Virus record (IMG/VR): IMGVR_UViG_3300034158_000023 | Location: 151,387-215,386 of that record | DNA: 64,000 bases | Direction: 5' to 3' (one strand) | Source of the DNA: a virus | Part shown: piece by piece, positions 4,835-60,046 of the stretch | Layout of the letters: each line of letters starts with the position of its first letter | How positions within the stretch are numbered: position 1 is the first letter of the stretch | Program-made: the position numbers and the translations under genes | Notes under the pieces: model-generated | What the model saw: the letters and a program-made list of their open reading frames with translations, nothing else | Databases searched by the model: none | Told to the model about the DNA's origin: nothing

Positions 4835-6571
4835 TTATGCTACTTCTTTCTGTGTCTCTTCTACCCCTAGGATAGAATCGTTACTAGCTCCTTGGTTTAG
4901 ATAAGCGCTGTAGATAGCAGTAAGTGCAGGGAACGCATGAATAGTTTCACAATAGTTAATGGCATTAGTTACACCACCACTTAAGTTCAATCCCACTCTA
5001 CGGCGATCTTCCTCACTCACACCTTCGATTTTAACTAACTCTAAAGTTGTAGTACCCTTAGAAGCGTTCATAACGATCTCACCCCATGGGTAAGCTGAAC
5101 GGATGTCTAAGTCAGATACATACAAACGAATCAGAGTTTGTAAATCTTCTACGTCTTCAATACACTTAAGACCATTCACTTCGACTAAGTGAGTAGCTAG
5201 TGTAATGATCCAATCTTCTGTGCCGATAACCAGATCATCTAACTCATCTGCCATCTTATCGGAAACGCAGCAAATAACCCTACCATGTTTCAAGAAGAAG
5301 AAATGTAAGTCCTCTGCTAGCTGTTTAGGTGTAGAGGAGAATAACCTGTAGGGACTAGCACCTACTAGTTCAGATAGAGAAATACTTAAGTCTTTAGTTT
5401 TCTCATCTAACAACTCCACACCGATACAGTCGAATAAGTTATAGATTAGGTATTCAATCTTATACTTCTTCTGCATGAACTCATGCCAAGCTAACTTAAC
5501 GTAACCATCAGCAAAATTAAAGTTCAGCTTACGTTTACCTAAGATCTTCTCTAGGATTGCATCTAACGCATAAGACTTCTCGTTACCTTTAGCCTTACGT
5601 AGGAATGCATATGTGCCCATAGCACAAATCCAGTAAGACTTAGAAGGTGTAATTAACGTATGCCATCTTTCATGCATAGAGAATGTCATTACGCCGCCAT
5701 CTGCTTTAATGCGGTTGGCTGGACCTTCAATGTAATTACATTCACGGAACTCTGGATCCACTCCAGGATCACTAAAGTGTATAGCTGGATCAATCCCATC
5801 ACGTTCTAAGGTTTGAATCATCTTAGGTACGTCGAAGTTCATGTTCCATGTAGCTACGAAATCAGCACCATATTCGTGTACACGTTTCAGCAACTCAATT
5901 ACTATCTGAGTGTCTGATTCTACTTCAACTATCTCTAGTTTGATACCACGAGACTTTTCATACTGACCTAAATGCTCAGAGAACGCTGCACGAATCTTTT
6001 CTTCAGCTTTAACGATACTACCCATAAACCTTTTAGAATAACAAAGGAATGCTTTATCTTTAAATGTGATAGAGCCTGAAATGATGTCACCCATTTCTTT
6101 ATGATCACGTCTACCACCTAACACGTTGGTCTCTAAGTCGAGTACCGCTATGCTATTAGGACTTACGATATCTTTCCAGGTAGTTAGATACTTAGTTTTA
6201 ACTAATGCTTCTGGAGTAATGTCAGTACCGTAGATGTACTGACTTCTACCTAACTGACGCATGTTCAGATTGCTAGTAGGTAGGTTTAAAGCTTTAGCTA
6301 TCTTCAAAGGCATAGTAGCGGTGTTGCTGCTACGCTTCTGTAGTCTGGTTAGTGACTCACTTTCTTTTTTGTCTTTATGTTTACGATAACCTTCTTTTGT
6401 AATATACCAATCGCGTTCAAAGTTAACAATCTTTCTAAGATTGGGTTCTCTAGTACCATCAGGTAAATGTTTATACTCTTTTACAAACACAGCATCATTA
6501 GAAGGATTATGTTTAGATTTAACGTAAACTATATGCTTCGCCTCTAACTTAAAATCTTTATCGGTGCTCAC
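4835..6571 (-). CDS. Family B DNA polymerase, exonuclease half ending after motif A
   Basis: Numbered from a GTG start at 6571-6569, which has GGGAGAG at good spacing; the longer frame to 6682 would overlap the divergent gene and lacks such a site. The 578-residue protein has the proofreading exonuclease motifs: Exo I LDLETN (D145, E147), Exo II TWNMNFDVP (D247) and Exo III YNLFD (Y377, D381). Polymerase motif A follows as DIRSAYPW (from D489). The protein then stops about 90 residues later, before any motif B (K-x3-N-x-YG) or motif C (DTD). A complete enzyme needs about 300 more residues, which no gene in this window supplies. It is therefore either one half of a split polymerase with its partner elsewhere, or a truncated gene. 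The closely packed intact neighbours favour a split enzyme. Confidence 0.75.
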   Translation of the reverse strand: MSTDKDFKLEAKHIVYVKSKHNPSNDAVFVKEYKHLPDGTREPNLRKIVNFERDWYITKEGYRKHKDKKESESLTRLQKRSSNTATMPLKIAKALNLPTSNLNMRQLGRSQYIYGTDITPEALVKTKYLTTWKDIVSPNSIAVLDLETNVLGGRRDHKEMGDIISGSITFKDKAFLCYSKRFMGSIVKAEEKIRAAFSEHLGQYEKSRGIKLEIVEVESDTQIVIELLKRVHEYGADFVATWNMNFDVPKMIQTLERDGIDPAIHFSDPGVDPEFRECNYIEGPANRIKADGGVMTFSMHERWHTLITPSKSYWICAMGTYAFLRKAKGNEKSYALDAILEKILGKRKLNFNFADGYVKLAWHEFMQKKYKIEYLIYNLFDCIGVELLDEKTKDLSISLSELVGASPYRLFSSTPKQLAEDLHFFFLKHGRVICCVSDKMADELDDLVIGTEDWIITLATHLVEVNGLKCIEDVEDLQTLIRLYVSDLDIRSAYPWGEIVMNASKGTTTLELVKIEGVSEEDRRRVGLNLSGGVTNAINYCETIHAFPALTAIYSAYLNQGASNDSILGVEETQKEVA

Positions 6572-6645
6572 AGTTGTTCTCTCCCTGTCGGTCCGTATAT
6601 GATGTACATACTGTGTAAAGTAAAACTTTTTTATGGAGTTATCCC

Positions 6646-7920
6646 ATGTTTCCAGAGAATGTATTTGTCGGCATAGAAGCAATGGCGTATAAAGCCAGAG
6701 AAAACTTCTACCCTCAGTTAGTTACTAAATTCCAGCACGTTTTAGACCATATAGACCTATCTATTCCTCGTCGCATACTGGATTGCAATATCCCTAAATT
6801 GGTAGGCGATGAGTTTAACATGAACGTTACCGTAACTGTAGAGAAGTCCACTCAGTATGGTGCGTACATGATTGCTCCTGATTTAAAAACAAACCACGCC
6901 TTATTATCTTCCTGGCGCAACACCTATTCAGAAGCTGGTGCATCTTTAAAGTATCTAAAGAGTTCTAAACTGAAATCTATCAATGGTTCTGTGTCTAGAG
7001 CTACTGGTAAGGTGTTTGGTGATTTCTCTAAAATACAAGCTCCTATCGTAATGTCAGAAGCTTTATTCGATGGTACGTTTACAGCCAGAGAGCTAGCTTC
7101 TATGTTCAGTCATGAGTTAGGTCACTTCTGGACTTACTTAGAATGTTTAGCCAGAACAGTAACAGCTAACTTAGCCTTAGCAGCAGTGTTACAAGAGTTG
7201 ACTGGTACGCAAGATGTTAAAATGAACTTCCAGTTAATCACAGAACTAGAAAACGTAACTGGTACGAAAATCCCTAACGCCAAGCAAGTAGCTAACTACA
7301 GATCAACTGAAAAGTTACACACCGTAGTAGTGAACGAAGTTTATAAACAAACTGTATCGTCAACTGAATATGGTAGCCTTTATGACCAAGCTGGTTGGGA
7401 ATCTCAATCGGATATGTTTGTTAATCGTCTAGGTGGTGGTAAAGACCTAACCACGGCACTGCACAAAATCCATAAGAAATATGGTGACGCTGCATACTGG
7501 GGAGCAACAGGTTGGTACATCTGGCAAATCCTGTCAGTAGCACTAACTCTGGTAGTGACATGGCCGATCTTATTAGCTGTCTTTTTCGTATTGGCGTTGT
7601 CTGGAACTCACCCAGAGACAAATGAGTATGATACGATTGCCGCTAGATGTAACAGAATCAAGTTGGATATCGTTGGTTCATTGCGCAATAAAGGGCTAGC
7701 AAAAGAAGAAGTAAAACAAACTCTGGCTGACATAGACGAGATTGAAGTAGCTTTAGAAAATGCCGTAGATAGACAACCATGGTTAACAGGTTTAATGGTG
7801 GTAGTCTGGAATCCCTTTAGAAAACAAGCCAAAGAAAAACAGATGCAACAACTTCTGGAAGAACTAGCTAACAACCCACTGTTAATAACCGCAGCTCGCT
7901 TTAAAACAGCTGATTATTAA
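6646..7920 (+). CDS. Membrane-anchored zinc metallopeptidase, likely virion or injected protein
   Basis: The 424-residue product carries HELGH (156-160) in a helix, ELASMFSHELGHFWTYLE, and a downstream WESQSDMF (E252) that fits the Glu ligand of gluzincin peptidases. One strong membrane segment spans about 291-319. A second hydrophobic patch is near 374-383. GIE-A at residues 9-12 matches the S/A/G-x-E site of phiKZ-type head proteases. TGGAG precedes the ATG. It leads a same-strand run with two other membrane-segment proteins bearing such sites, suggesting all are packaged and ejected. A peptidase acting on the cell wall, on host proteins or on virion partners are all possible. The motif is clear; the role is inferred. 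Confidence 0.65.
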   Translation: MFPENVFVGIEAMAYKARENFYPQLVTKFQHVLDHIDLSIPRRILDCNIPKLVGDEFNMNVTVTVEKSTQYGAYMIAPDLKTNHALLSSWRNTYSEAGASLKYLKSSKLKSINGSVSRATGKVFGDFSKIQAPIVMSEALFDGTFTARELASMFSHELGHFWTYLECLARTVTANLALAAVLQELTGTQDVKMNFQLITELENVTGTKIPNAKQVANYRSTEKLHTVVVNEVYKQTVSSTEYGSLYDQAGWESQSDMFVNRLGGGKDLTTALHKIHKKYGDAAYWGATGWYIWQILSVALTLVVTWPILLAVFFVLALSGTHPETNEYDTIAARCNRIKLDIVGSLRNKGLAKEEVKQTLADIDEIEVALENAVDRQPWLTGLMVVVWNPFRKQAKEKQMQQLLEELANNPLLITAARFKTADY

Positions 7921-7931
7921 GGATCATTCCG

Positions 7932-9053
7932 ATGAGATTAAAAATTACTACTAACCGTAATCACGATACGGGGATTGAGGCGTTAGAACAAGAGCTGTCA
8001 CCTCAAGAGCAACGCGCTGATGAGTATTTGAAGTTAAATGATACCATTGGTGCCTTAAGAGCTGAACCCTCTGTAAACACACCTACGGAAGGCACAGAGA
8101 GCTTCCAGCATAAGACAGCATCTACTGAGTCTTTAGTAATTGCTGGTATCATTGCAGCGTCAGCTTTAGTGATGGCGGCTATCTACAAAATCTACAAACA
8201 CTTTGCAGATAAGCCAGCCTCAGACAACGCTATCCGTGTAGCTCAAGATCTAGAAGATCTGAAAGACTCCACAGATTTAAATGGTGGTGCTACATCCATT
8301 ACCTCAAGTGCTGCTAACAGCGGACATTTGCGTAAAGTGATGGCCTTGTATTTAGCTAGTGTTAAACTCACTACTGATAAGCAAGGTATGTTAATCGGTT
8401 TTAAACCAGTGCACGAGTTCCTTAACTCAGTACAAGTATTGGTAGCTAAACTAGGTGTACTAGCAGCCGAGAAAACTGGTACGGTTTCAGGTACTCTAAG
8501 TAAAGAAGACTTAGATACTACTAAATTTGAAACCACATACAACAACGTGATTCGTTTGTTGAATGAATTACAGTGGAAGATGCCAGAAGACTTTAAGAAG
8601 TCCTTTGCTATCTCAGAACCTAAGCTCTTTGTTTTTGGTGGAGAGTATAACTACATCAAAGGTATTGATCTAGCGTTCAGTGAACTTCAAACCCACTTAG
8701 CTAAGACTAATGATAAAGATGTGGTTACAGCGGCTGAACTGTCTAAGTTGATGTTAAGTCCATCTCTGCGTGAGACTATAGTGCAGTGTGGCAACATCTC
8801 TAAAACGTTAGAGTCAGAAGGTGAAGCTATCTCTAAAGCCGCTGAGAAAGCAGAGACCACCATCAAAGGTTTAGGTCATGACTTAGCTACTACTCAAGAT
8901 GATATCGAGTTAAAGAAATTAGCTCTGTATGTTGAGATCGTTAAAGCTACGGCTAACATCTACAAGAAACAAAATTTAATTACCATTGCCGCCGTTAAGT
9001 ACGTGGAAGAAGTAGCCAAAGTAATGAAAGCTGCATCTAACACCATCGATTAA
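7932..9053 (+). CDS. Virion or injected protein with maturation site and membrane segment
   Basis: No family is recognised in this 373-residue protein. The first 56 residues are polar and contain GIE-A (14-17) and GTE-SF (54-58), the latter identical to the predicted cleavage site in the major capsid protein. STE-S follows at 64-67. Immediately after comes a hydrophobic membrane-type segment (about 68-86), then a long helical domain. Cleavage after E56 would leave the membrane segment near the new N-terminus. It follows the metallopeptidase gene by 11 bases and precedes a small partner gene. Confidence 0.65.
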   Translation: MRLKITTNRNHDTGIEALEQELSPQEQRADEYLKLNDTIGALRAEPSVNTPTEGTESFQHKTASTESLVIAGIIAASALVMAAIYKIYKHFADKPASDNAIRVAQDLEDLKDSTDLNGGATSITSSAANSGHLRKVMALYLASVKLTTDKQGMLIGFKPVHEFLNSVQVLVAKLGVLAAEKTGTVSGTLSKEDLDTTKFETTYNNVIRLLNELQWKMPEDFKKSFAISEPKLFVFGGEYNYIKGIDLAFSELQTHLAKTNDKDVVTAAELSKLMLSPSLRETIVQCGNISKTLESEGEAISKAAEKAETTIKGLGHDLATTQDDIELKKLALYVEIVKATANIYKKQNLITIAAVKYVEEVAKVMKAASNTID

Positions 9054-9064
9054 GGATTTCTACA

Positions 9065-9430
9065 ATGATCACCCAAGACCAGATTAACATGCTCGTTAGT
9101 TTTCTTCGCAACGGAGAAAAGAAGTCATCTCGTGGTAAGTTGTTAACTATTGCCATCGCGTATTCTATCCCTGTAGCGCAGACTAGCGAAGATAGTCTTA
9201 AGAGTTTCCCAGGCTATTTCACTACTGCCTGTGAAGCGTTGAGCAAAATCAATGAAGAACACATCATCCCGATTAAACAAATCACGGAAGACATCCGTAA
9301 GACGTTTTTCTATCGCATCACGGCGTTTGATCTACCTCAGGTTGAAATCCCCGCAGTGTTATCCGATTTAGATGGTGACGACATTTTTGATTTGTCGACA
9401 TTGAAGCGCAACTTAAAAGACATTTTCTAG
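9065..9430 (+). CDS. Hypothetical protein, 121 aa, in injected-protein cluster
   Basis: Not recognised. A soluble, largely helical product without a membrane segment or maturation site. AAGGA precedes the ATG and the gap from the upstream stop is 11 bases, so it is co-transcribed with the two membrane-segment genes before it. It could be a chaperone or small virion partner, but only by position. Confidence 0.65.
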   Translation: MITQDQINMLVSFLRNGEKKSSRGKLLTIAIAYSIPVAQTSEDSLKSFPGYFTTACEALSKINEEHIIPIKQITEDIRKTFFYRITAFDLPQVEIPAVLSDLDGDDIFDLSTLKRNLKDIF

Positions 9431-9439
9431 CATAACCTT

Positions 9440-9470
9440 GATCCATGGGTAGCGCCATGGATCATTTGCC
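9440..9470 (+). terminator. Hairpin between genes 9065 and 9485
   Basis: GATCCATGG (9440-9448) pairs perfectly with CCATGGATC (9455-9463), then ATTTGCC. No T-tract. It may weaken read-through or mark an RNA 3' end. Confidence 0.5.
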
Positions 9471-9484
9471 TTAAGGAATTTATT

Positions 9485-10888
9485 ATGTTCGATTATGCTG
9501 AATACGATAAAGCGCAAAAAGCCTTAACCGTTTTACGCGATATCCAAGAGAACGTTAAAGTAAACGGTGTGTCTAGAGCCGATATCACATATGCTCTAGA
9601 AGCCGCCGAGATTTTCAAACTCCCTAATCGGTACCCAGTTAACTCATTCACTGCTGAAGCTAGTAGCACTAATTTAGACGTGGCTCTAGAAAGTCTATCT
9701 GAAGGTCAACGCCTAGGTTACTCTATTTTAACTGGTGTGATCGTAGGTCTCTTAGCTAAGATCATTTCTTATTTTTTCACTGGTGGTAGTAGCGGTGGTT
9801 CTGGTAGTTCGGCTCCGTACATTGCAAAGCAGAACCACACTCTGGAACAATTCGCAAATCTTAAAAAGATTGCTGTGTTGGAAAGAGAGAGAGCTGACGA
9901 GATAGCATCTATGGGTGTTAGACGTAAAGCTATGCGTAAAGTGCTAGGAGATGTAGAGATCTCTGAGTACATGTTGCAACATCCCTATACACGGATTGCA
10001 TTTGAAACCTTGTGTTCTCATAACGCTAAGTTTAGAAAATGTACTTCGTTTTTAGGTGAGCTCCAGAAACGTGAAAACCTTCGAAGCATTTATGTCTTCA
10101 TTATGCAAGAGCTAAATGATTCTTTGTTAGAGATGATCGAAACTGCTGATGCCATTAAAGAGTGGGTGTACGCTCGTCGTCGTGGTGGCAACAGAGAAAA
10201 AGTAATCGAGCCACGTTTGCAGATCCCTGGCCCAATGTTAGATCGCTTTATTGCACGTGGTACTAAATCAGTCCATGGCTGGTTAGCAGCTAACAATATC
10301 GTTGGCCCTGGCATGATGATTGATGTTACGCCACCAGATGAGTACAAAGGGGTACCTATCCCAACGGAAGATATCCCGTTGTTCTTACTGATCGAAACAT
10401 TTAAGTTTATGAATCAGATGAGCAGTGATCCTACAGGCATCAAGTTTGCGGAACCTACTGACTATCTAGATCGTTTAATCACAGCAAAAGAAAAACTGTT
10501 GCTGCGGGTTACTAGTTCTACGGTGTTAGAAGAATGGGAACCTTTACCTAATGCTACGCCTAAAGACTACGATCCAATGGACAGAGCTACTTTACTTAAC
10601 AAACGTGTAAGTAAAGCGTACGATAAGACTGAGTGGAATACTCTTTTCTCTAAGCCTAAACCTGATGGTAAGGATGGCGATGAAGAGAGCGATTGGTTTG
10701 TAGGGGAAAGTTGGAAGTTAGTGGATATCTATTTTGACGGAGTACAGAGTCTCTATAAAGAATCTGCAATTCTGTTGAAGATGGCTAACGATATTATTTC
10801 TGGTATGCATGACGCTTTGCGCATCGTGGACAAGTATCAGAAAGAACTCAAAACTGAAACTAAAGAAACTGAACCTGCTGCTGAGTAG
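9485..10888 (+). CDS. Virion or injected protein with maturation site and membrane segment
   Basis: The 467-residue product has ALE-S at 67-70, a G/A/S-x-E head-protease type site, followed by a hydrophobic segment (about 78-98) and a Gly/Ser linker (99-109). The rest is a mainly helical soluble domain. The order propeptide, cleavage site, membrane segment, helical domain repeats that of the gene at 7932, although the sequences are not obviously alike. AAGGAATT precedes the ATG. Probably packaged in the head and delivered with the DNA, which is an inference. The gene ends at a palindrome shared with the convergent gene at 10930. Confidence 0.65.
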   Translation: MFDYAEYDKAQKALTVLRDIQENVKVNGVSRADITYALEAAEIFKLPNRYPVNSFTAEASSTNLDVALESLSEGQRLGYSILTGVIVGLLAKIISYFFTGGSSGGSGSSAPYIAKQNHTLEQFANLKKIAVLERERADEIASMGVRRKAMRKVLGDVEISEYMLQHPYTRIAFETLCSHNAKFRKCTSFLGELQKRENLRSIYVFIMQELNDSLLEMIETADAIKEWVYARRRGGNREKVIEPRLQIPGPMLDRFIARGTKSVHGWLAANNIVGPGMMIDVTPPDEYKGVPIPTEDIPLFLLIETFKFMNQMSSDPTGIKFAEPTDYLDRLITAKEKLLLRVTSSTVLEEWEPLPNATPKDYDPMDRATLLNKRVSKAYDKTEWNTLFSKPKPDGKDGDEESDWFVGESWKLVDIYFDGVQSLYKESAILLKMANDIISGMHDALRIVDKYQKELKTETKETEPAAE

Positions 10889-10929: not shown

Positions 10930-13824
10930 TTATTCCTTGTGGGCTATGAAGTCTACCAAGATAGCTTCTTCTATGCCTAGGGATGCGTTTGACAGCACCT
11001 TAAGGTTACGTCTAACACTACAGCGAGTAGCTTCATCCACAGCAGTGAATGTAGAGATATCTCTATCTGGGCCCATAGGATCCATTTCAATACTCAACAC
11101 GTCACCCTTGATAGCCACTTTAAGCATATCTGTAATACCAGCAATACTTACCGTAGCTTCTTTCAAAGCTTCGTTAATAACTCGCTTAGTAGTTTTAGTT
11201 ATGCTTTCACGCAATAGTAGATTACCGTAGTTAAGTCTAGTCATGTAGTAAGTAACCACAAAACTTAATCTAGCAGGAATCTCCACAACCACGTTACTAC
11301 CTACAATTACTTTGTTCTGTCCTAAAGACTTCTTAGGATAGTAGTAAAGTTCAGTCTTAGCATGGAGTTGTGGTTTAATCGAGTTTAACTTACCAGATAA
11401 GAACTCTAATACAGTATCAGCAATAGTGTTTCTGTAAGCCACATCAGTTACACTGTTACTAAAGTAATAAGCTCCATCTACTAAAAACAAATCTATTTGA
11501 CGATCTGTTTTCCTAGGTTTAACTACGATAGGTAAACCACTTTCATCATAAACCACGTCAGAGGCTTTAGCTTTGTAAACTACCTGCCCGTCGTCGTCTA
11601 ATAAAGGATCACCCTTATGGATTAGCACGTTGTACTTAGCTTCTCCGTTCTCTATCCAGATTTTAGGTAACCCAGTTATTGGATCAGTTTCTAAAATGGT
11701 GTCTGGGTAAGTGTAAGGTACATCCACCCCGTATGTGGCATACTGCACGCTACTATCAACGGTTCTGCCATTACTCCACAAGTTAGTAAGAGCCTCACCA
11801 AACTTCAGCTCCACAGACTCCTGTACAATCCCCACAACTTCATCAGGCAACAAGTGTCTACCTAATCGTAAGTCGATGTCACTCTTACTTAAGCCGTAGA
11901 TAGAGTAATCAGAAACCCCATAGATCAAACTGAACTTCTCAGTTAACCCACAACCGAAGTTACGTACTTGGTCAGAGAACATACTGAAGTTATTCAACAT
12001 TATTAAATCTCTACTATCGATATCTAAAGTAGTTTTAATAGTGAATTCCCAAATAGCGTTACCTTCCTCAGTAACTGCTTTAAGTACCCCATTTAAAAAC
12101 GCTGGGTTGTTTTCTTTATCTGGAATGAAACTTAATTGACAGAACAGTTTCTCCATAGGCAAGTCTTGGTAGTTATCACCAGACAGAACCTCGATCGTCA
12201 ATACCCAGTTGTCGCCTTTTCTAACAAACGAAAGTTTATTAGTGGCTACGTTAAGTTGAGTAGTGTCGTTCTCTAAGATAAACTGTCTGCTAGTTACGTT
12301 AGCATTACCTAAGTAATAAGCACGGCAATCGAAAGAGTTACCAGTTGCATCCAGTACATAGTGGAATGGCGAATACATAAACTCAGTAGAGTTCACAGCA
12401 GTAGCCAAAGCATCATTAGACAACCCTAGATAGAAAGGGTGTTCCAAGTTTGACACCACAGTTACAATACCGTTCTCACTTTTATAGAGAGTATCGGGAG
12501 TTACAGTTAAACGTAATCCGTTGTCTCTAGTGTTAGATGAGGTAGCCAGATCATCCATGTTGGTTTGTAACGTACCAATCATACAAGCTGCCCCTGAAGT
12601 AAACTCAGAGTTAGCAACCGCAGGTAGATGTCGAGTAGCTTGATAAACACGACGCATCAAGTTGTCGATACTAAGAATGATAGTAAACCCATCAATTTCA
12701 AAGTTAGTACGTAGCTGCGCTTCAGTGATTGGGTTAGTAGTGCGGTTAGCATTCTCAATAGAACGTTTACGCGCTTCCTCAAAGGTTAGTCCACTACGAC
12801 CACCGTTAACCTTACCGTCACCAGCAATACCCATCACACTCCAAGATTCCAAAGGAGTATAATAAATAGAATCAGTGATGTCAGTAAACCCTTTACCATA
12901 CTCTAGCGAGAACGCATTAGATACGTACTCACCCATATCTAAATTAACTGGGCCTTTAGAGGTGTAGATAATGATCTTAATCTGAGGAGGCAACTTACCT
13001 TCACTGAAATAGATTCTAGGGATAGTTACCCGTAAAGAATTACCAGAGTAACGTAATAAAGCAGTATTGACCCGCTTGTCGTAAATTAACTCACTGTGAG
13101 TAGTTACGAACGGTGTCTCTACTCCAGATGCACTAATACCAATCACTTCACAGTGGTAGAAGTTATCAGAAAGAGCATACGCTTTATTAAAACCTACAGA
13201 TGGGTTTAGAGTATCGAAAAACTCTTTTCTATCTAACTGCACTAGCTGGATTGGTAAGTTGATCATCTCAACTTCACTTAACACACCTTGTTTCCATTCC
13301 ACGATGTTTGTTTCTAGTGGACGGATTACGCTTTGTACAGTACTGTCGTAAACTACTTGAATGCCACCGTGAGACATTACCCGGATCTCAATTGGGTAGA
13401 GAGTCATAAACGGGATACCAGTTACGGTAATTTTAGTGTACTTAGGAATAATTAATTTACGTACTCCAGTATCACCTACCTTAACTGCTTTAGCGTAGAT
13501 CTCATCCTTACTAAAGTAAACGTTAAAGTTACCGACAGCATAAGTGCAGAACAGGTTAAGGTAATCCACATCAGCCATATGGCGATACAGATCTTCCCAT
13601 GACTCTACAGTAGACTTCTCTACCTTAGTCAATGCAGTCTCCATGCGAATCAAAGCAGCAGCCGCTAATTCACTACCCATCTCTAACGTAAACACAAATG
13701 GGTTAGTAGCATCAACTAAGTCAGTAGCTCCTGCCATAATGGATTCTAAACGCTCAAACTGGTAACGCTGAAATGTTGCTGGGGAATAACCAGTCTTTAG
13801 TAGCGTATCAATAATTCCAGTCAT
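10930..13824 (-). CDS. Large virion protein, possibly baseplate
   Basis: A 964-residue product, counted from the second of two adjacent ATG codons because AGGAGG lies only 2 bases from the first and 5 from the second. It looks beta-rich with no membrane segment. A central stretch (GGRSGLTFEEARKRSIENAN, then NPITEAQLR) recalls the region of baseplate-wedge (J-like or gp6-like) proteins where a Gly/Ser-rich start, an E-x-x-R helix and an ITE segment occur together. That is suggestive only. It overlaps the end of the next minus-strand gene by 17 bases, so the two form a small operon of structural type. Confidence 0.6.
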   Translation of the reverse strand: MTGIIDTLLKTGYSPATFQRYQFERLESIMAGATDLVDATNPFVFTLEMGSELAAAALIRMETALTKVEKSTVESWEDLYRHMADVDYLNLFCTYAVGNFNVYFSKDEIYAKAVKVGDTGVRKLIIPKYTKITVTGIPFMTLYPIEIRVMSHGGIQVVYDSTVQSVIRPLETNIVEWKQGVLSEVEMINLPIQLVQLDRKEFFDTLNPSVGFNKAYALSDNFYHCEVIGISASGVETPFVTTHSELIYDKRVNTALLRYSGNSLRVTIPRIYFSEGKLPPQIKIIIYTSKGPVNLDMGEYVSNAFSLEYGKGFTDITDSIYYTPLESWSVMGIAGDGKVNGGRSGLTFEEARKRSIENANRTTNPITEAQLRTNFEIDGFTIILSIDNLMRRVYQATRHLPAVANSEFTSGAACMIGTLQTNMDDLATSSNTRDNGLRLTVTPDTLYKSENGIVTVVSNLEHPFYLGLSNDALATAVNSTEFMYSPFHYVLDATGNSFDCRAYYLGNANVTSRQFILENDTTQLNVATNKLSFVRKGDNWVLTIEVLSGDNYQDLPMEKLFCQLSFIPDKENNPAFLNGVLKAVTEEGNAIWEFTIKTTLDIDSRDLIMLNNFSMFSDQVRNFGCGLTEKFSLIYGVSDYSIYGLSKSDIDLRLGRHLLPDEVVGIVQESVELKFGEALTNLWSNGRTVDSSVQYATYGVDVPYTYPDTILETDPITGLPKIWIENGEAKYNVLIHKGDPLLDDDGQVVYKAKASDVVYDESGLPIVVKPRKTDRQIDLFLVDGAYYFSNSVTDVAYRNTIADTVLEFLSGKLNSIKPQLHAKTELYYYPKKSLGQNKVIVGSNVVVEIPARLSFVVTYYMTRLNYGNLLLRESITKTTKRVINEALKEATVSIAGITDMLKVAIKGDVLSIEMDPMGPDRDISTFTAVDEATRCSVRRNLKVLSNASLGIEEAILVDFIAHKE

Positions 13825-14914
13825 CATTACCTCCTAACAATTTTAGATAGTTCTCAATAGAACAATACCAGAAAAGTTCCCCAGTATCTTCATGGATTAA
13901 TGGAGTGCCTAAATAGTTAGCACCTTTTAATAAGTTTCTAGGTATTTTAACCCATGTTTCACTTTGCTCACCTACAGTAGTCAGACTGCCATTGGAGTTC
14001 ATATCTACGATTAGTAAGGCTGGGTTGAATCTAGCCACCAAACGGTTGAACTCTCTGAAGTTGATTGGATCATTGTACTCAGCTACGTTACATTTAAAAG
14101 TAACTGGTAATTGTTCCTGTGATCTTTGCATGGTGTCACCACCAGTAAAGTTAAACAAAGAACCGATTGGGAACGTCGTAGGGAATCCACCCATACCAGT
14201 TACAGCTGAGTGTTGAATGTACTGACGACCTGGATCTAAAATAAAATGGTAGATACGGGTTTTAGAATCAATGGCGATATTAATCTGATTGATTAGATAT
14301 GGTTCCATGTTTTCAAACCGTACCCCGTACATGTAGTACAACCACGTTAAGATAAGTAAAGCTATCGGACTACCTTGAGTGTTTCTAAACGACGCGGTTA
14401 AATCAAACTCACCGTTGTGTTTAGCAATACCAGTCAACATACTCCAAGACTCACGCATCACCCCTTCCTTACTACTGTAAGTTTCTGGGTTGATATCAGG
14501 CCATCCAGATAAGCTCACTAAGTTGTTAGTCAACACAGCCATGAATGGATTGAGTTCATCTATCAATGGAGATGTTATGCCCCTATCGTTAGACATTGGA
14601 TCTAATAATGTGCGAATGGCTCTCTGAATAGTAGGTGGTTCATCTTGCTGCGTAGCTAATGGCATTAGTACCCGTTGCTTCGCAAGGTTATCGTATGACA
14701 AATTTAAATCCGGTCTGGTAAAGAAGATAATACCAGTGTTATCTTGTGTTGATGCCACTGGGTTACCGAGCCCACGATGGTTGATGCCCCGCATCATGTT
14801 CAGATATGCATCATTAAGCTGCCCTATACCACTCTTACGTGATATCAGGTCAAGGAGTTCTTCCATATTTTGAAAATAGGGAGACTCAGCAGATGACGTA
14901 CTTTTTTCGGCCAT
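13808..14914 (-). CDS. Virion structural protein, unknown role
   Basis: A 368-residue protein with no catalytic motif or membrane segment. It begins with a Ser-rich stretch (AEKSTSSAESPYFQN). The middle has the hydrophobic segment LLILTWLYYMYGV, more likely core packing than membrane. GGAG precedes the ATG. It is first of the two-gene minus-strand unit with the large protein at 10930, and its start lies 27 bases from that of the divergent gene at 14942. The structural assignment rests on context and composition. Confidence 0.6.
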   Translation of the reverse strand: MAEKSTSSAESPYFQNMEELLDLISRKSGIGQLNDAYLNMMRGINHRGLGNPVASTQDNTGIIFFTRPDLNLSYDNLAKQRVLMPLATQQDEPPTIQRAIRTLLDPMSNDRGITSPLIDELNPFMAVLTNNLVSLSGWPDINPETYSSKEGVMRESWSMLTGIAKHNGEFDLTASFRNTQGSPIALLILTWLYYMYGVRFENMEPYLINQINIAIDSKTRIYHFILDPGRQYIQHSAVTGMGGFPTTFPIGSLFNFTGGDTMQRSQEQLPVTFKCNVAEYNDPINFREFNRLVARFNPALLIVDMNSNGSLTTVGEQSETWVKIPRNLLKGANYLGTPLIHEDTGELFWYCSIENYLKLLGGNDDWNY

Positions 14915-17491: not shown

Positions 17492-18898
17492 ATGAGACGT
17501 TTACCCCTCCGTGCAAAAGCAGGGTTAGAATCGGGCGACGGCGAGTTAGACTTGACATCTACAGACCCTGTAGACATGTCGGAGTTTGAATCTGAAGCTA
17601 GCGCTGTAGCCGAACACACCCGTGAGGTAACTGATGCCAATGAAGCAGTGATGGGCTTAGAAGCCATTGCTATGGGCATTCAGTCTACTCTGAAAGGCCG
17701 TGGTTTAGATCGTAATGCCGCTATGTTTGCTCACATCGCTACTGCTGCATATTGCGACCGTCTGCGTGTGAACAACCCATTGCCTTCTTTGGAAAACTTT
17801 GGTGCTACTACTTCACAGCTCACGATGACTCGTGCTGGCCTAGAAGATGTTAAGCAAAAGATCAAAGATGCTTGGAAATGGATCATTGATCTGTTACAGT
17901 CCGGCATCCGTAAAGTAAATGAGTATTATCAGCGTGTTTGGGCTCAAGCTCCACGTTTGATTACTAAAGCGCAAGCTATCTCTAAACAGGTGTCTGAACT
18001 GAAAACAGGTAAGTCTAAAGATGGTAAAAACATCGACGTAGACAAATCTTCTTTCACTACTGTACACGTAGCCAAAGCCGTAGATGGTGCTGGCCTTGTA
18101 GGTGGCATGAAGCAGTTAGAAAGCATCAGTGGTGATATCTTTGTTGATTACGTCAAGAAAGTTACTGACTGGGGCGATCAAGTCGTAACCAGTACTACTG
18201 ACATCGATTATGCTGATGACAACCGTTTCACTGAAACTGTCAATAAGCTGATGGAGCACAAGCTAGAAACTGATAAGTTAGTAGCTGCTGCAACTGTTGC
18301 TTCTCAAGCTGGTCCTAATGCAGGCGGTAAAGAAACTCCTGAAATTATGGGCGGCAAGAAAATCTTCGTTAAAATCGGTGCCGATGTATCTGCTGAGAAA
18401 GCTCCTGGTACTGAAGACGACCAAACTGGTACTGCTCCAGGCGCAGAAAAAACAGCTGGCGCTACTGTAGTCCTAGCCGATTGGCGTGGTTTCGTAAACC
18501 CATTATCTGATACACGTGTGTATTTAGGTTCTGCTTATGAAACTGAACCAGAGCTAAGCGACAAATCAGTTGCAACCTTTGAAGCTCAACAAATTGGTAG
18601 TATCGCAGCTTCTGCTGAAGCATTGTGTACTATTATTATGAACTACAAAGCAGGTAATAAGCGCGCCAATGATTTACGTCAAAAGGCCATTACCGCAGCT
18701 AAGCGTGCTCAAACTAACGCCGTCAAAGCTGACGACCTTAGCAAAGACAACGCGACAGTGGCTGGTCAGTTGAATAAAGTTGTTGCTGCTGTAAACACTT
18801 TGTTAACTCAGCCAAACCAAGAGTTCAGTGCGCACATGTTACGTGTCACTAACGTATGTCTGCAATTGTGTGAAAAGTCTTTAGCTAATTACAAATAA
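17492..18898 (+). CDS. Inner-body (internal head) protein, paralogue of 18985 product
   Basis: A 468-residue protein with an acidic N-terminal propeptide-like region and GLE-A at residues 55-58, a S/A/G-x-E head-protease site. After it come a helical stretch (VKQKIKDAWKWIIDLLQSG) and a C-terminal helical domain, both matching in layout and partly in sequence the product of the next gene. phiKZ-like phages pack families of such cleaved paralogues as an inner body inside the capsid. AGGAGC precedes the ATG. A terminator-like hairpin follows. Role well supported by family pattern, not by an identified domain. Confidence 0.7.
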   Translation: MRRLPLRAKAGLESGDGELDLTSTDPVDMSEFESEASAVAEHTREVTDANEAVMGLEAIAMGIQSTLKGRGLDRNAAMFAHIATAAYCDRLRVNNPLPSLENFGATTSQLTMTRAGLEDVKQKIKDAWKWIIDLLQSGIRKVNEYYQRVWAQAPRLITKAQAISKQVSELKTGKSKDGKNIDVDKSSFTTVHVAKAVDGAGLVGGMKQLESISGDIFVDYVKKVTDWGDQVVTSTTDIDYADDNRFTETVNKLMEHKLETDKLVAAATVASQAGPNAGGKETPEIMGGKKIFVKIGADVSAEKAPGTEDDQTGTAPGAEKTAGATVVLADWRGFVNPLSDTRVYLGSAYETEPELSDKSVATFEAQQIGSIAASAEALCTIIMNYKAGNKRANDLRQKAITAAKRAQTNAVKADDLSKDNATVAGQLNKVVAAVNTLLTQPNQEFSAHMLRVTNVCLQLCEKSLANYK

Positions 18899-18934
18899 GT
18901 AATAGTTTGAGTCTTGGCACGTTAAACCCTGTTA

Positions 18935-18970
18935 TGAGGAACATTATCAGTTCCTCACTAATTCTTTTTT
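18935..18970 (+). terminator. Intrinsic terminator between inner-body genes
   Basis: TGAGGAAC (18935-18942) pairs with GTTCCTCA (18950-18957) around a 7-base loop, followed by a T-rich stretch to 18970. It lies 15 bases before the next start codon, so the downstream gene probably has its own promoter or depends on read-through. Confidence 0.65.
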
Positions 18971-18984
18971 GAAGGATACAATGT

Positions 18985-20337
18985 ATGAAATTACGTATTA
19001 ATGGCGCAAGCGGTTTTTCAGCTGGTTTAGAAGATGCAGAAGTTGAAGCTGGTATGTCAGAAGGCGAAGCTGCGATTGCTGCTGCTGAAACTGCTACTGA
19101 CGTAGCTGAAATCGAAAGCGACCTTACCAACGCCACTCGTCTTGAAGATCAAGCCGAAGGTATGGAAGACGCTGCTGAAGTTATCGACGGCATCGAACGC
19201 GCTACTCCAGGTGAAGTTCAACTTGCAGACGTGGCTTCTAGCCTAGCAACTGCTGGTACTGACGCTGAAGTTGAAATCTTCGAAGATGCTCCAGAAGGCG
19301 AAGCAGTATCTGTGGAATCTTTCACTAATCGTAAGATTGGTACTGAAGGTCTGAAAGAAATGGCTCAGAAGTTCTGGGCTGAAGTTAAGCGCCTTGTTGC
19401 CAAAGCTTGGGAAGCTATTCTCAAATTCTGGCGTAAAGTGACTGACCAAGTTCCAGGTGTTGTTAAAGCTGCTCGTTCTCTGCGTACTCGCGCTGAAGAT
19501 GCCGCTGGTAAATCACTTAAGTCTGAAGACAAGAAACTCAAAGCTGGCTCTGCTGGTTTAGCGTTAGTCTTAGGCGACAGTTACCCAACTTCTGCTGGCG
19601 ATGTTACTAAAGCCGTTGAAAACATGACTGCTGTAGCTAAAATCGTTTTAGATGCTGATGCTAAATCAGTACACGAAGGCGGCGAAGCTTTACAATCTGC
19701 TATCAACGATTTCGATGTTGAGAAAGCAGAAGAGTCACTGAAGAAAGTAACTGACAAAGTTAAAGCTGGCGGTTTCGGTCAATCTGGCGCATGTAAAACT
19801 GCAATCGGTTCAGACAGCCGTTACGGTAACGGTTTAACTGCAACTAAGTCTGTTGATCTTCCAGGCGGCGTGATCCTTGTTGCTTCTAAAGCACCAAATG
19901 AATCTAACGGTGGTCTGTTAGGTTGGGCTGCTGCGTTACGTTCACAATCAGTTGCCGTTGTACACCACAACGACAAAGACAAAAAGTCTATCACTGAGAA
20001 AGACGTAACTACCTTGTCTCTGCAAGAGATCAAGAAAGTTGCTGATCAAGCCGAAGATCTTGCACTGGTTGTTAAAGGTTTCCAAGAGAAGCATTTACGT
20101 AAACTGGAACAAGCATCTAACAAGATGAAAGGCGCTGGTGACAAAGTTGCGAAACAAGTCACTGAAGAAACTCCAGCTCTTGCTCAAAAGCAATATCAAG
20201 CCGCTCTGCGTTTCGTTACTGCATACGCTGCATGGTCTGCTTCTCCATTCAACCGTATCGCACAGATGTCTCTGACAACTGCTCGCGCTGCTATTGAAGT
20301 GGGTAACAAGTCTGTTGGTAAATACTCAGCTGCTTAA
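18985..20337 (+). CDS. Inner-body (internal head) protein, paralogue of 17492 product
   Basis: A 450-residue protein. Residues 15-108 are very acidic (Glu, Ala, Asp) and look like a removable propeptide; SVE-SF (109-113) and GTE-G (119-122) are predicted head-protease sites. The mature part begins with EMAQKFWAEVKRLVAKAW, equivalent to VKQKIKDAWKWII in the neighbour, and ends in a helical domain with a SVGKYSAA tail (SLANYK in the neighbour). Basic mature part and acidic propeptide suit a DNA-associated core protein. AAGGA precedes the ATG by 8 bases. A TTCG-loop terminator follows. Confidence 0.7.
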   Translation: MKLRINGASGFSAGLEDAEVEAGMSEGEAAIAAAETATDVAEIESDLTNATRLEDQAEGMEDAAEVIDGIERATPGEVQLADVASSLATAGTDAEVEIFEDAPEGEAVSVESFTNRKIGTEGLKEMAQKFWAEVKRLVAKAWEAILKFWRKVTDQVPGVVKAARSLRTRAEDAAGKSLKSEDKKLKAGSAGLALVLGDSYPTSAGDVTKAVENMTAVAKIVLDADAKSVHEGGEALQSAINDFDVEKAEESLKKVTDKVKAGGFGQSGACKTAIGSDSRYGNGLTATKSVDLPGGVILVASKAPNESNGGLLGWAAALRSQSVAVVHHNDKDKKSITEKDVTTLSLQEIKKVADQAEDLALVVKGFQEKHLRKLEQASNKMKGAGDKVAKQVTEETPALAQKQYQAALRFVTAYAAWSASPFNRIAQMSLTTARAAIEVGNKSVGKYSAA

Positions 20338-20442: not shown

Positions 20443-20724
20443 ATGCGCCAAATATACACCACTGATAAAATCCTAAAGTTATTTAAATGGTTAAATAGTC
20501 TACCTAAAGAAAGATTACCATTTGTACCAGTGACAGATAATGAGTTGGAAGAACTACTTGTTCTAGGTACCAACTTCGATGTATTGGAACCAATTCCTGA
20601 CACTTTTGCAGACGTACGCGTTAACATGCATGGGTTTACACTAAGGTGCCGACATGGAAGGCTATCTATTTTTACCTGTAAAGATGACGTATTAAAACTG
20701 TATGTATTGAAGGGGGCTAAGTGA
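20443..20724 (+). CDS. Hypothetical protein, 93 aa
   Basis: Not recognised. A short soluble protein with a basic helical start (TDKILKLFKWLNSLPKERLP) and a beta-looking end. GAGGAGG lies before the ATG, one of the strongest ribosome sites in the window. Its TGA overlaps the ATG of the NADAR-like gene, so the two are coupled and may act together, for example as partner or antidote; this is inference. Confidence 0.65.
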   Translation: MRQIYTTDKILKLFKWLNSLPKERLPFVPVTDNELEELLVLGTNFDVLEPIPDTFADVRVNMHGFTLRCRHGRLSIFTCKDDVLKLYVLKGAK

Positions 20725-21194
20725 TGTTGATATGGACTACAAGTGGGATGATGGAACATGACCATAATGCAGATGGGGTATTGTACCTTAACTGCTATAG
20801 CCAAGCCTCCACTCAGTTAGGTAGGGATCTATCTAACTTTGCTAGTTTAGGGTTTACTATTCCAGGCGTGGGAAGGTTTGCATCTATGGAAGGACTTTGG
20901 CATTGGGTAGCAACTGGTAAGAAGTATCCTGAGTTCATGAGCATGAACGGATACAAAGCTAAGATGGCTAGTCGTAGCTACAAGAAAGTACATAACCCTA
21001 ACTTTGAGCAGGATATCTGTGCTGGAGTAGAAGCTAAACTAACTCAGAACCCAACTCTACTTCAAGCTTTGATTGCTAATAAATTACCGTTAGCACATTT
21101 TCGTTTTAACCATCAGCAATTAATGGACATCCCTCCTGATCAAATGTTCTGGTTAGAGGCTATCGACAATGTTAGACGATGTTATGATTTCTAA
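20724..21194 (+). CDS. NADAR-domain protein (YbiA-like, ADP-ribose related)
   Basis: The start is the ATG overlapping the upstream TGA; an in-frame GTG one codon earlier is less likely. The 156-residue product has NADAR landmarks in order: LSNFA (36-40), a Glu in RFASMEGLW (E56) and AKLTQNPTLLQALI (104-117), equivalent to AKFEQHAELRALLL of E. coli YbiA. NADAR enzymes act on ADP-ribosylated or riboside compounds, and some remove ADP-ribose from guanine bases in DNA. In a phage this could counter a host DNA ADP-ribosyltransferase such as DarT, or process NAD-derived signals. The gly-rich C-terminal end of YbiA is missing. The family match is by eye. Confidence 0.6.
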   Translation: MLIWTTSGMMEHDHNADGVLYLNCYSQASTQLGRDLSNFASLGFTIPGVGRFASMEGLWHWVATGKKYPEFMSMNGYKAKMASRSYKKVHNPNFEQDICAGVEAKLTQNPTLLQALIANKLPLAHFRFNHQQLMDIPPDQMFWLEAIDNVRRCYDF

Positions 21195-29335: not shown

Positions 29336-31501
29336 ATGTCCCATTTTACACGAGTAGATCAAAGTTCAGGTCTTGGTGCTCTGTACGCAACCATTAATGC
29401 AACTCTTTCTAAACAAGCTGCGGTTGTTGCAAACGACGTTACTGCTAGAGCTGTAGCTGGTTTAGAGTCTGCTGCTATTGGCGCTCACCGCGACACTCAC
29501 AAAAACATTGAGAACATGCTGTCACAGTGTGTTACTAGCGTTCCAAGCGTCGCTGCCCCAACTTGCCACGGCTTAGAAGCTGCTGCAATCCTTGTAGCTG
29601 CATCAAGCAATCCATCTGTTTATCACGACGCCGTACGTGGTGCACAAAACATCCACGCTAAACTGCGTGAGTTCGGTCCTTTAGGTAGCGGTAACGCAGG
29701 TGCTTTAAGCTACTCTACTGGTACTGAGTCATTTGATACTCAAGAACTAGCCAAGCACACTGTACAGTCAATCACTTACACGATTGATGCCGTTCGTCAA
29801 GATGCATTAGGTGAATTGTTCTTCCCAACAATCGTAGCAACTCCAGACCAAGCTTTCTATAAAGCTTCTGTAGTTCGTCCTACGATCTTCCGCGGTATTA
29901 CTCACAGTCGTGATGGTAATCCGACCAAGTGGGAAAAGTACAACCTGTTAGACGCGTATCGTGATGCTTCTTTACTGAAGAACGATTCAACTCGTCTGAT
30001 TCCATATGCTTCATCTGAAGCAGTTGACAACTTAGCGCCTGTTTCTGAAATCGCTACAGTTAACGTTAAAGTCGGCGACTGGACTGTTCCATCACGTCCT
30101 CTGAAAATGGGTAAGAAGATTAACCTTATCGGTATCTCCATGCACCCAGATTTAGTAGCTAACGGTGTTTGTGATCAAACTGACCACATTGACCGCGCTG
30201 CACGTGTTGAAGCGTTGTATGTTAAAGTTACCAAAACTGGTAACGCTGCGCCAGCTGAGATCATCAAGTTCAACGTTTTAGGCATGCCATCAAGCAACTT
30301 CTACAAGACGCAAGAAGGTAAAGGCTACGACGCAATGCTCAAGATGACTCTGCGTTCATTGCGCCTTGACAAAAACACCAAGTCTATCTCTGGTGCAGTT
30401 CCAGCTATGTTAGCTGATTTCGTAGCAGCCAACTTAGCAGTTGACTTAGAAACTGTTGTTGACGGTGAATTGAACTTCGAACAAGGTACTGCAAACGTTC
30501 GCGGTAGCCACCTGACTCCACGTGCAATTTACGACGTGTCTTCTGATCTGGCTACTCAGTTAACTACGCATGCTTCTTTGGAAAATTTAGTATTCGAACC
30601 AGTTTACTGGGACATCGATGCTCACCTGACTAACACCAACCGTCGTACTCGCGGTACCATGTTAGACAATGACGTCTTCGAAGAAATTTACACCATCGGT
30701 TTGTTAGCTCCTATCAGCGTACAGAAGCCAGTGCACCTTACTGACAAATCTGCTGTCACTGAAGTTGAAACAGATACTCTGGTTAAAGCTACTCACGTGA
30801 TCATCAGTAACAGCGCTGTAACAACTCTGCTGAACTACTGTGAACATTTGAAATCTTTCTACCACAAAAATATCAATCACCTGCGTGCTGCATCTATCGA
30901 CGGTGAAGGTATTGAAGGTATCGGTCGTTTATTGGTAACTCCATTCTACGCCGAAGCTGAAATCGACTTAGTTGAAGTAATCAACTCATTGACTTCAACT
31001 GATAAGATGAGCGACTTACGTGGTTACTTCACTGGTTTCATCACTGAACTCGGTTACCGTATGGCTCAACGTTCTGGTTACTTGCCTGTGTTACGTCAGT
31101 ACACTAACAACCCAGAAGCTACGCCTACACTACTGATCGGTACTGACCAAGTGTTGCCACAGTTCATGATGATCAATGGCGATCCACGTGCTGTCGGTCC
31201 TACTCTGAAGCATGAGATCGCATCAAGCCCAGATGACCGTATGGTTGGTGAAATCATCCTTAGCTTCGGCAAGGTAGATGACAAGAACTTCTGTCCTCTG
31301 AACTCTGGTAACATGATCTGGATTCCAGAGTGGATTTCTACAATCCCAGTAAACCGCGGTGGCGCTACTGTGAATGAAACTTGCGTACAACCACGTTTCC
31401 GTCACGTGATCAACTTACCAATCTTCGCACGTATCAAAGTTACTAACCTTGATAAGTACTTAGGTACTAAGATGAACATCGCTTACAAAGAAGTCGTTTA
31501 A
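29336..31501 (+). CDS. Major capsid protein
   Basis: The 721-residue product has the size and layout of phiKZ-type major capsid proteins. An N-terminal region of 131 residues ends at GTE-SFD (129-134), a S/A/G-x-E head-protease site; cutting there would leave a mature shell protein of 590 residues. The mature part starts helically and contains LGELFFPTIVATPDQAF, typical of an HK97-like N-arm and spine region, followed by beta-rich domains. Other GLE tripeptides at 42-44 and 79-81 could be further cuts in the propeptide. Only this gene has such length together with a late-gene leader and a strong TTCG terminator. Fold assignment is from pattern, not structure. Confidence 0.75.
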   Translation: MSHFTRVDQSSGLGALYATINATLSKQAAVVANDVTARAVAGLESAAIGAHRDTHKNIENMLSQCVTSVPSVAAPTCHGLEAAAILVAASSNPSVYHDAVRGAQNIHAKLREFGPLGSGNAGALSYSTGTESFDTQELAKHTVQSITYTIDAVRQDALGELFFPTIVATPDQAFYKASVVRPTIFRGITHSRDGNPTKWEKYNLLDAYRDASLLKNDSTRLIPYASSEAVDNLAPVSEIATVNVKVGDWTVPSRPLKMGKKINLIGISMHPDLVANGVCDQTDHIDRAARVEALYVKVTKTGNAAPAEIIKFNVLGMPSSNFYKTQEGKGYDAMLKMTLRSLRLDKNTKSISGAVPAMLADFVAANLAVDLETVVDGELNFEQGTANVRGSHLTPRAIYDVSSDLATQLTTHASLENLVFEPVYWDIDAHLTNTNRRTRGTMLDNDVFEEIYTIGLLAPISVQKPVHLTDKSAVTEVETDTLVKATHVIISNSAVTTLLNYCEHLKSFYHKNINHLRAASIDGEGIEGIGRLLVTPFYAEAEIDLVEVINSLTSTDKMSDLRGYFTGFITELGYRMAQRSGYLPVLRQYTNNPEATPTLLIGTDQVLPQFMMINGDPRAVGPTLKHEIASSPDDRMVGEIILSFGKVDDKNFCPLNSGNMIWIPEWISTIPVNRGGATVNETCVQPRFRHVINLPIFARIKVTNLDKYLGTKMNIAYKEVV

Positions 31502-47853: not shown

Positions 47854-47863
47854 GGGGGCAGTT

Positions 47864-49876: not shown

Positions 49877-49877
49877 T

Positions 49878-52418: not shown

Positions 52419-52423
52419 CATTG

Positions 52424-52445
52424 TAAGATGGTCTCGGCCATCTTA
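52424..52445 (+). terminator. Hairpin after adhesin gene
   Basis: TAAGATGG (52424-52431) pairs with CCATCTTA (52438-52445). It has no T-tract and could be an RNA 3' end or processing site inside the fibre operon. Confidence 0.5.
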
Positions 52446-52484
52446 TGATTAGACTATTAGTCTTACTTACAATGGGATAGATTT

Positions 52485-55871: not shown

Positions 55872-55874
55872 CCC

Positions 55875-55894
55875 GATGGGGGTTCGCCCCCATC
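55875..55894 (+). terminator. TTCG-loop hairpin in fibre operon
   Basis: GATGGGGG (55875-55882) pairs with CCCCCATC (55887-55894) around TTCG. It lies between the shaft gene and the small gene at 55909, with no T-tract. Confidence 0.6.
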
Positions 55895-55908
55895 TATTAG
55901 GAGCTGTT

Positions 55909-58178: not shown

Positions 58179-58184
58179 ATCCAT

Positions 58185-58206
58185 TAGGGGTAGGCAACTG
58201 CCCCTA
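58185..58206 (+). terminator. GNRA-loop hairpin in fibre operon
   Basis: TAGGGGTAG (58185-58193) pairs, with one G-T, with CTGCCCCTA (58198-58206) around GCAA. No T-tract. Confidence 0.55.
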
Positions 58207-58222
58207 GTATAGGTGAGGCATT

Positions 58223-60037: not shown

Positions 60038-60046
60038 GAGTAATGC

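What the first reader, a model, noticed from the sequence alone, without database searches (positions are those of the whole stretch)
6646..10888. Injected-protein module: metallopeptidase plus two membrane proteins with head-protease sites
Three genes in one direction encode proteins with S/A/G-x-E sites near the N-terminus and a single membrane segment; in two the segment follows the predicted cut directly. The first is an HExxH peptidase. Packaged, cleaved proteins with membrane segments would suit a channel or anchor delivered with the DNA. I know of no described set of this kind.
Basis: partly seen in the sequence, partly recalled or inferred. Interest (0 to 1): 0.7.

Follow-up and report, generated by a model that had tools for sequence, protein, structure and literature searches.

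The report
Trimmed head proteins of nucleus-forming phage
These genes encode head proteins of a giant, nucleus-forming bacterial virus: a zinc peptidase, an inner capsid-corner complex and an orphan membrane protein, probably trimmed by the virus's own head protease; all but the orphan are known kinds, and whether any of them enters the host membrane is still open.

Summary
The window lies in a 215-kb phage record with a chimallin homologue and an S80 prohead protease. ORF 6646-7920 is the phiKZ gp84/SPN3US gp45 family, an M48/Ste24-like zinc peptidase. Its predicted cut residue E11 is invariant in all full-length relatives and aligns with SPN3US gp45 ASE-20, a cut proven by mass spectrometry. 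ORF 9485-10888 is the phiKZ gp86/SPN3US gp47 family (leave-one-out HMM E 1.7e-19); its ALE-69|S cut matches SPN3US gp47 ALE-111. The finding skipped ORF 9065-9430, the gp85 family. Solved capsids hold gp85- and gp86-type chains at a constant 2:1 ratio, which points to an inner penton-vertex complex rather than a free injected channel. ORF 7932-9053 is an orphan; its best cut is STE-66|S, touching the membrane helix, not E56.

New here: (i) the gp86 pro-segment is related to that of the inner-body proteins; (ii) the helix after the cut switches between transmembrane and amphipathic among related phages; (iii) the transmembrane type usually carries a Gly/Ser-rich leash. Whether these helices enter the host membrane is unresolved; the peptidase is the best candidate for an injected protein.

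The parts
6646..7920 (+). M48/Ste24-like zinc peptidase, phiKZ gp84 / SPN3US gp45 family, 424 aa
   Evidence: phrog_2767 E 5.3e-75; 202 phage records by tblastn; profile matches ZMPSTE24 E 5e-6; conserved catalytic residues
6676..6678 (+). codon of E11, predicted P1 of the head-protease cut (GIE|A)
   Evidence: Invariant in all full-length relatives; aligned with SPN3US gp45 ASE-20 proven by MS
7111..7125 (+). HELGH zinc-binding motif, residues 156-160
   Evidence: H156, E157, G159, H160 invariant 22/22
7399..7413 (+). ExxxD, residues 252-256, third zinc ligand region of the M48 type
   Evidence: E252 and D256 invariant 22/22
7504..7617 (+). hydrophobic stretch of the peptidase, about residues 287-324
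   Evidence: Hydropathy; AF2 models helices 287-302 and 307-320 at low confidence
7932..9053 (+). Orphan 373-aa protein with one membrane helix after candidate cuts
   Evidence: No phage match even at E 10; ribosome-binding site AAGGA upstream; weak match to the gp86-type cut region only
8127..8129 (+). codon of E66 (STE|S), preferred cut, directly at the helix
8130..8186 (+). membrane helix of the orphan, residues 67-85
   Evidence: mean hydropathy 2.28 over 19 residues
9065..9430 (+). phiKZ gp85 / SPN3US gp46 family, 121 aa; predicted partner (2 copies) of the next protein
   Evidence: family HMM built without the window E 6.1e-7; relatives in solved capsids
9485..10888 (+). phiKZ gp86 / SPN3US gp47 family, 467 aa
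   Evidence: leave-window-out HMM E 1.7e-19, only significant hit in the window; relatives in solved capsids
9485..9691 (+). pro-segment residues 1-69 ending in conserved YPVNSFT-x4-S-x-TN-xx-VALE
   Evidence: alignments A2 and A6; E69, T56, G28 invariant in A6; profile match to the inner-body family E 2.9e-5
9689..9691 (+). codon of E69 (ALE|S), predicted cut
   Evidence: same place relative to motif and helix as SPN3US gp47 ALE-111 and the conserved SQE of phiKZ gp86
9713..9781 (+). membrane helix residues 77-99
   Evidence: hydropathy
9779..9814 (+). Gly/Ser-rich leash residues 99-110 after the helix
   Evidence: G/S content up to 0.71; mean 0.56 in TM-type relatives against 0.14 in the others
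17492..20337 (+). two phiKZ_IP inner-body proteins (17492-18898, 18985-20337) whose pro-segment resembles that of 9485-10888
   Evidence: PF12699 E 7e-40 and 3e-30

Best explanation
This is the gp84-gp85-gp86 head locus of a chimallivirus-like jumbo phage plus one orphan insertion. Homologues show that the peptidase and the gp86-type protein enter the prohead as precursors and are trimmed after [SAG]xE by the S80 protease. The gp86-type protein and two copies of the gp85-type protein sit inside the capsid, most likely as five spokes under each penton. Its pro-segment, shared with the inner-body proteins, is probably the signal that targets it into the prohead; the cut leaves a short tail of about 7-8 residues in front of a hydrophobic helix which, in this phage, hangs on a Gly/Ser leash. 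The M48-type peptidase is an active enzyme carried in the head that is not seen in the ordered shell; I infer that it is ejected with the DNA and works at the host inner membrane or the early infection vesicle. Shown by sequence here or by experiment on homologues: packaging, cleavage, 1:2 pairing in capsids, conserved active site. Inferred: vertex position in this phage, targeting role of the pro-segment, enzyme activity and ejection of the peptidase, any membrane insertion.
For: Homology and synteny in 20 other phages, with the genes downstream of DNA polymerase and mostly upstream of phrog_3248. Cuts proven in SPN3US. Chimallin homologue E 6e-19 and S80 protease E 2.8e-77 in the genome. MCP cut region aligned with SPN3US ATE-130. 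Leave-one-out HMMs. Chain counts in solved structures: 8Y6V gp85 2: gp86 1: MCP 27; 11FG/11MK gp66 12: gp65 6 ('PVC protein'); 36ZA 110: 55, i.e. 11 x 5. The peptidase profile finds no phage chain in the PDB. Catalytic residues invariant 22/22. Rough spectral counts in SPN3US (gp47 2.17 mature, gp45 2.99, sheath 8.84 at 264 copies) would scale to about 65 and 90 copies, my own crude estimate.
Against: No virion of this phage exists to test. The structure papers for 8Y6V, 11FG and 36ZA could not be read here, so the vertex position rests on molecule names and chain counts. The 36ZA gp86-type match is weak on its own (E 0.0098). SPN3US gp47 was inferred to be an ejection protein, and phiKZ gp93, which is also modelled in the capsid, is injected, so a shell position does not exclude ejection. 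No peptidase activity has been shown for any member in the papers read.
Confidence: 0.68

Rival explanations
1. Injected membrane set: all three proteins leave the head with the DNA and insert in the host inner membrane or early infection vesicle, as anchors or as the missing nucleotide/mRNA channel.
For: SPN3US gp47 amber mutant: intact, dead virions and a membrane helix at the mature N-terminus. Early vesicles need unidentified channels. The conserved short spacing between cut and helix and the Gly/Ser leash suit insertion of a short N-tail.
Against: gp85/gp86 relatives are ordered in capsids at 2:1. The helix is amphipathic, not transmembrane, in about half of the family. One helix per protein makes a channel unlikely without oligomers. 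No localisation data.
Confidence: 0.25
2. Purely structural and assembly roles: gp85/gp86 spokes brace the vertices, the hydrophobic helix packs in the shell or core, and the peptidase helps to clear cut propeptides inside the maturing head; nothing here acts in the host.
For: Ordered capsid position; profile similarity of the gp86 pro-segment to inner-body proteins; [quoted passage not shown]
Against: Truncated gp47 still gives normal-looking heads that fail to infect. A Gly/Ser leash is odd for a helix packed rigidly. The peptidase carries a long hydrophobic stretch in nearly all relatives.
Confidence: 0.3
3. The orphan 7932-9053 is a second, strongly diverged gp86-type protein, as Vibrio phage pVp-JHP1101 has one upstream of its peptidase.
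For: Same layout (cut, helix); profile alignment puts STE-66 on the family's cut residue; pVp-JHP1101 P0 is a detectable gp86 paralogue.
Against: Score barely above shuffles, probability 5%; no [FY]T-x-S signature; no other relative.
Confidence: 0.3
4. Chance: the cut motifs are background matches.
For: [SAG]xE is common; about one in four shuffles has it near the helix.
Against: Family-wide invariance at proven cut sites for two of the three proteins. It remains possible for the orphan.
Confidence: 0.04

Closest known systems
SPN3US gp45 / phiKZ gp84 (phrog_2767; annotated M48 family peptidase in phage Moabite)
   Same: Length, HExxH + ExxxD, hydrophobic stretch near residue 300, short N-terminal pro-peptide cut after [SAG]xE, gene position next to DNA polymerase
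   Different: 17-27% identity; cut residues GIE|A here, ASE|S in SPN3US
SPN3US gp47 / phiKZ gp86
   Same: Conserved pro-segment, cut just before a helix, gene position; membrane helix as in gp47
   Different: Shorter pro-segment (69 against 111 residues); helix amphipathic in phiKZ
phiKZ gp85 (PDB 8Y6V chain E) and 'PVC protein gp66' (11FG)
   Same: Family of 9065-9430, modelled in capsids at 2 per gp86-type chain
   Different: Shorter (121 aa) and placed after the orphan instead of directly after the peptidase
phiKZ_IP inner-body proteins (PF12699; phiKZ gp93/94/95, SPN3US gp53/54)
   Same: Pro-segment end, cut and helix after the cut align with the gp86 family
   Different: Bodies differ; helix amphipathic; high copy number
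Ste24/ZMPSTE24 and HtpX (peptidase family M48)
   Same: HExxH...ExxxD signature and adjoining hydrophobic segments; best PDB matches by profile and by fold are Ste24/ZMPSTE24
   Different: Only local similarity; Foldseek E 0.026 and TM-score 0.21

Membership tests
phiKZ gp84 / SPN3US gp45 head peptidase | Full-length sequence similarity | tested here: met
   phrog_2767 E 5.3e-75 over residues 5-422
phiKZ gp84 / SPN3US gp45 head peptidase | Cut after [SAG]xE in the first 8-20 residues | tested here: met
   GIE-11 aligned with proven ASE-20; the cleavage itself in this phage is not testable here
Peptidase family M48 | HExxH plus downstream ExxxD | tested here: met
   H156/E157/H160, E252/D256 invariant
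Peptidase family M48 | Pfam PF01435 above its cut-off | tested here: not met
   13.4 bits against 20.3 for the window protein; 5 of 21 relatives reach E 0.01. I call it M48-like, not a member
Peptidase family M48 | M48 fold | tested here: inconclusive
   ZMPSTE24 ranks first, prob 0.99, E 0.026, low TM-score; model pLDDT 72
phiKZ gp86 / SPN3US gp47 | Profile similarity with the window left out | tested here: met
   E 1.7e-19
phiKZ gp86 / SPN3US gp47 | Conserved pro-segment and cut before a helix | tested here: met
phiKZ gp86 / SPN3US gp47 | Present in the virion head | not testable with these tools
   metagenomic phage; shown only for homologues
phiKZ gp85 | Profile similarity | tested here: met
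   E 6.1e-7
Chimalliviridae (nucleus-forming phages) | Chimallin (ChmA) gene | tested here: met
   26% identity over 397 residues of phiKZ gp54, E 6e-19
S80 prohead protease substrates | S80 protease in the same genome | tested here: met
   PF20034 E 2.8e-77
phiKZ gp86 family for orphan 7932-9053 | Profile similarity | tested here: inconclusive
   pairwise E 0.007, probability 5%, just above 60 shuffles
Injected (ejection) proteins | Found in the host after infection with translation blocked | not testable with these tools
   needs tagged virions

The most novel reading that the evidence does not exclude
Membrane anchors armed by the head protease: removing a long pro-segment leaves a tail of about 7-8 residues in front of a hydrophobic helix on a Gly/Ser leash, so that vertex-bound or ejected gp86-type proteins (and the orphan) can insert spontaneously into the host inner membrane or early infection vesicle, with the M48-type peptidase acting beside them.
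Probability: 0.25. Interest if true: 0.75.

Novelty: new member of a known kind. Interest (0 to 1): 0.42.

Why it matters
It places a metagenomic locus in the head-maturation programme of nucleus-forming phages and corrects a channel reading that solved capsids make unlikely for one of the proteins. It also gives three testable points about a protein essential in SPN3US: a pro-segment related to that of inner-body proteins, a helix that toggles between transmembrane and amphipathic, and a leash that goes with the transmembrane type. How chimalliviruses make and use the early infection vesicle is open, and a packaged membrane peptidase is a good candidate factor.

Tried and rejected
Close relatives in IMG/VR from single proteins: none for the window's proteins. 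AF2 of the gp86-type protein: only residues 4-86 usable, so no fold search was run on it. The non-TM 336-348 aa gene of related phages (KpLz-2_45, PCH45, PhiEaH1, SPLA10, Moabite) was tested as a relative of the orphan: no match. The papers on phiKZ head proteolysis (PMC3323674), the phiKZ capsid structure (PMC11297242) and the early vesicle (PMC12256282, PMC11494934, PMC11239273) are not held. JADA (phiKZ gp124, sensed by Avs5) was considered as a link and rejected: a different gene, expressed early. I rejected 'channel for the early vesicle' as the leading reading because of the capsid chain counts and the loss of the membrane helix in about half of the family.
Full report
What is there. The window is the last 64 kb of a 215,386-base IMG/VR virus record. 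That record encodes a homologue of the phiKZ nuclear shell protein ChmA (26% identity, E 6e-19) and an S80 prohead protease (PF20034, E 2.8e-77), so the phage is a chimallivirus-like jumbo phage. The interval holds four co-directional genes, not three: 6646-7920, 7932-9053, 9065-9430 and 9485-10888, all with plausible ribosome-binding sites. They lie between DNA polymerase (4835-6682, minus) and a phrog_3248 gene (10930-13827, minus), the same frame as in phiKZ, SPN3US, PCH45, RAY, Moabite and others (in phiKZ itself the minus-strand gene before the peptidase is gp83, and LucasX, lacks the downstream half of the frame).

Peptidase. ORF 6646-7920 matches phrog_2767 over its whole length (E 5.3e-75) and 202 phage records, including phiKZ gp84 and SPN3US gp45. 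Across 22 relatives HExxH and ExxxD are invariant, the M48 signature; the family profile finds ZMPSTE24 and Ste24 in the PDB (E 5e-6 to 5e-4). A fold search with a pLDDT-72 model ranks ZMPSTE24 first, but only as a local match (E 0.026), and relatives in BFVD include phage proteins annotated as zincin or M48 peptidases, among them Bacillus phage AR9. The Pfam M48 cut-off is not met, so I call it M48-like. Its N-terminus carries GIE-11|A. E11 is invariant in all 21 full-length relatives, the only such residue besides Met in the first 120, and aligns with SPN3US gp45 ASE-20, a cut proven by mass spectrometry (PMC10052503).

gp86-type protein and its partner. A profile built from 18 relatives without the window finds ORF 9485-10888 at E 1.7e-19 and nothing else in the window at a significant score; a gp85-family profile finds 9065-9430 at E 6e-7. 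The pro-segment ends in a conserved [FY]T-x-S-x-TN-x-VA-x-E block; E69 is invariant in the second alignment and has the place, relative to motif and helix, of SPN3US gp47 ALE-111; the automatic alignment shifts SPN3US and CR5 by two columns here. In TM-type members the hydrophobic window usually starts 7-8 residues after the cut.

Solved capsids. Profiles find the gp85 and gp86 families in PDB entries: 8Y6V (phiKZ; gp85 two chains, gp86 one, gp93 three, gp162 three, MCP 27), 11FG/11MK ('PVC protein' gp66 twelve, gp65 six) and 36ZA ('inner-peripheral baseplate spokes', 110 and 55). The ratio is 2:1 in each, and 55 equals 11 vertices times 5, so I infer an inner penton-vertex complex. The papers behind these entries could not be read here. 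The peptidase finds no phage chain in the PDB, so it is probably not part of the ordered shell.

New comparisons. (1) The gp86 family and the phiKZ_IP inner-body family align by profile over the pro-segment end, the cut and the following helix (E 2.9e-5, probability 74%), while control pairs give E above 0.1. A search with the inner-body profile also lists gp86 weakly (E 0.018). (2) The helix after the cut is transmembrane-like in about half of the family and amphipathic, mostly cationic, in the rest; on the peptidase tree at least two to three switches are needed, for example between Burkholderia phages FLC8 and FLC9 (LucasX is borderline). (3) TM-type members mostly carry a Gly/Ser-rich stretch right after the helix (mean peak G/S 0.56 against 0.14, Mann-Whitney p 2e-4, not corrected for kinship).

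The orphan. ORF 7932-9053 has no detectable relative. Its best cut is STE-66|S, directly at the helix; GTE-56|SF matches the inferred MCP cut of this phage. Resemblance to the gp86 cut region is at noise level. Its membership, packaging and cleavage are predictions only.

Mechanism. Shown for homologues: packaging in the head, cleavage, presence of gp85/gp86 in capsids. SPN3US gp47 is essential, and its amber mutant makes intact but dead virions, which led its authors to propose ejection and membrane contact (PMC5694885). SPN3US proheads form on the inner membrane and need proteolysis to leave it (PMC7411985). Early infection vesicles contain injected virion proteins and need unidentified channels (PMC12908238). 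My reading is: shell-bound gp85/gp86 complex, ejected peptidase, membrane use of the leashed helix open. A channel is the least supported version.

Verdict. The set is already described in outline and is a new member of a known kind, with one orphan and three comparative points that I did not find stated in the papers read.

Noticed in passing
17492-18898 and 18985-20337: Two phiKZ_IP inner-body proteins with pro-segment, cut (GLE|D, GTE|G) and a Trp-containing amphipathic helix, related by profile to the gp86-type pro-segment.
   Followed up: yes
29336-31501: Major capsid protein; its GTE|SF aligns with the proven SPN3US cut ATE-130 and suggests that this phage's protease accepts Gly at P3.
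   Followed up: partly
L007:5692-6963: Vibrio phage pVp-JHP1101 carries a second gp86-type protein (AIE-75|A, membrane helix, Gly/Ser leash) upstream of its peptidase.
   Followed up: partly
PDB 11FG chain Cj (934 aa), residues about 570-765: The gp65 chain shows a second, weaker match to the gp86 profile near residue 570, with MES followed by a hydrophobic helix: perhaps two maturation modules in one protein.
   Followed up: no
4835-6682: The DNA polymerase ORF from its first TTG overlaps the peptidase start by 37 bases; its true start is probably further downstream.
   Followed up: no
20721-21194: 157-aa ORF matching phrog_652 and phrog_11222 (unknown function) after the inner-body genes; no Pfam match.
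   Followed up: no
45043-60967: Run of large, partly repetitive ORFs that look like tail-fibre or adhesin genes; not analysed.
   Followed up: no
62405-62989: RuvC-like resolvase, below the Pfam cut-off (E 0.006).
   Followed up: no
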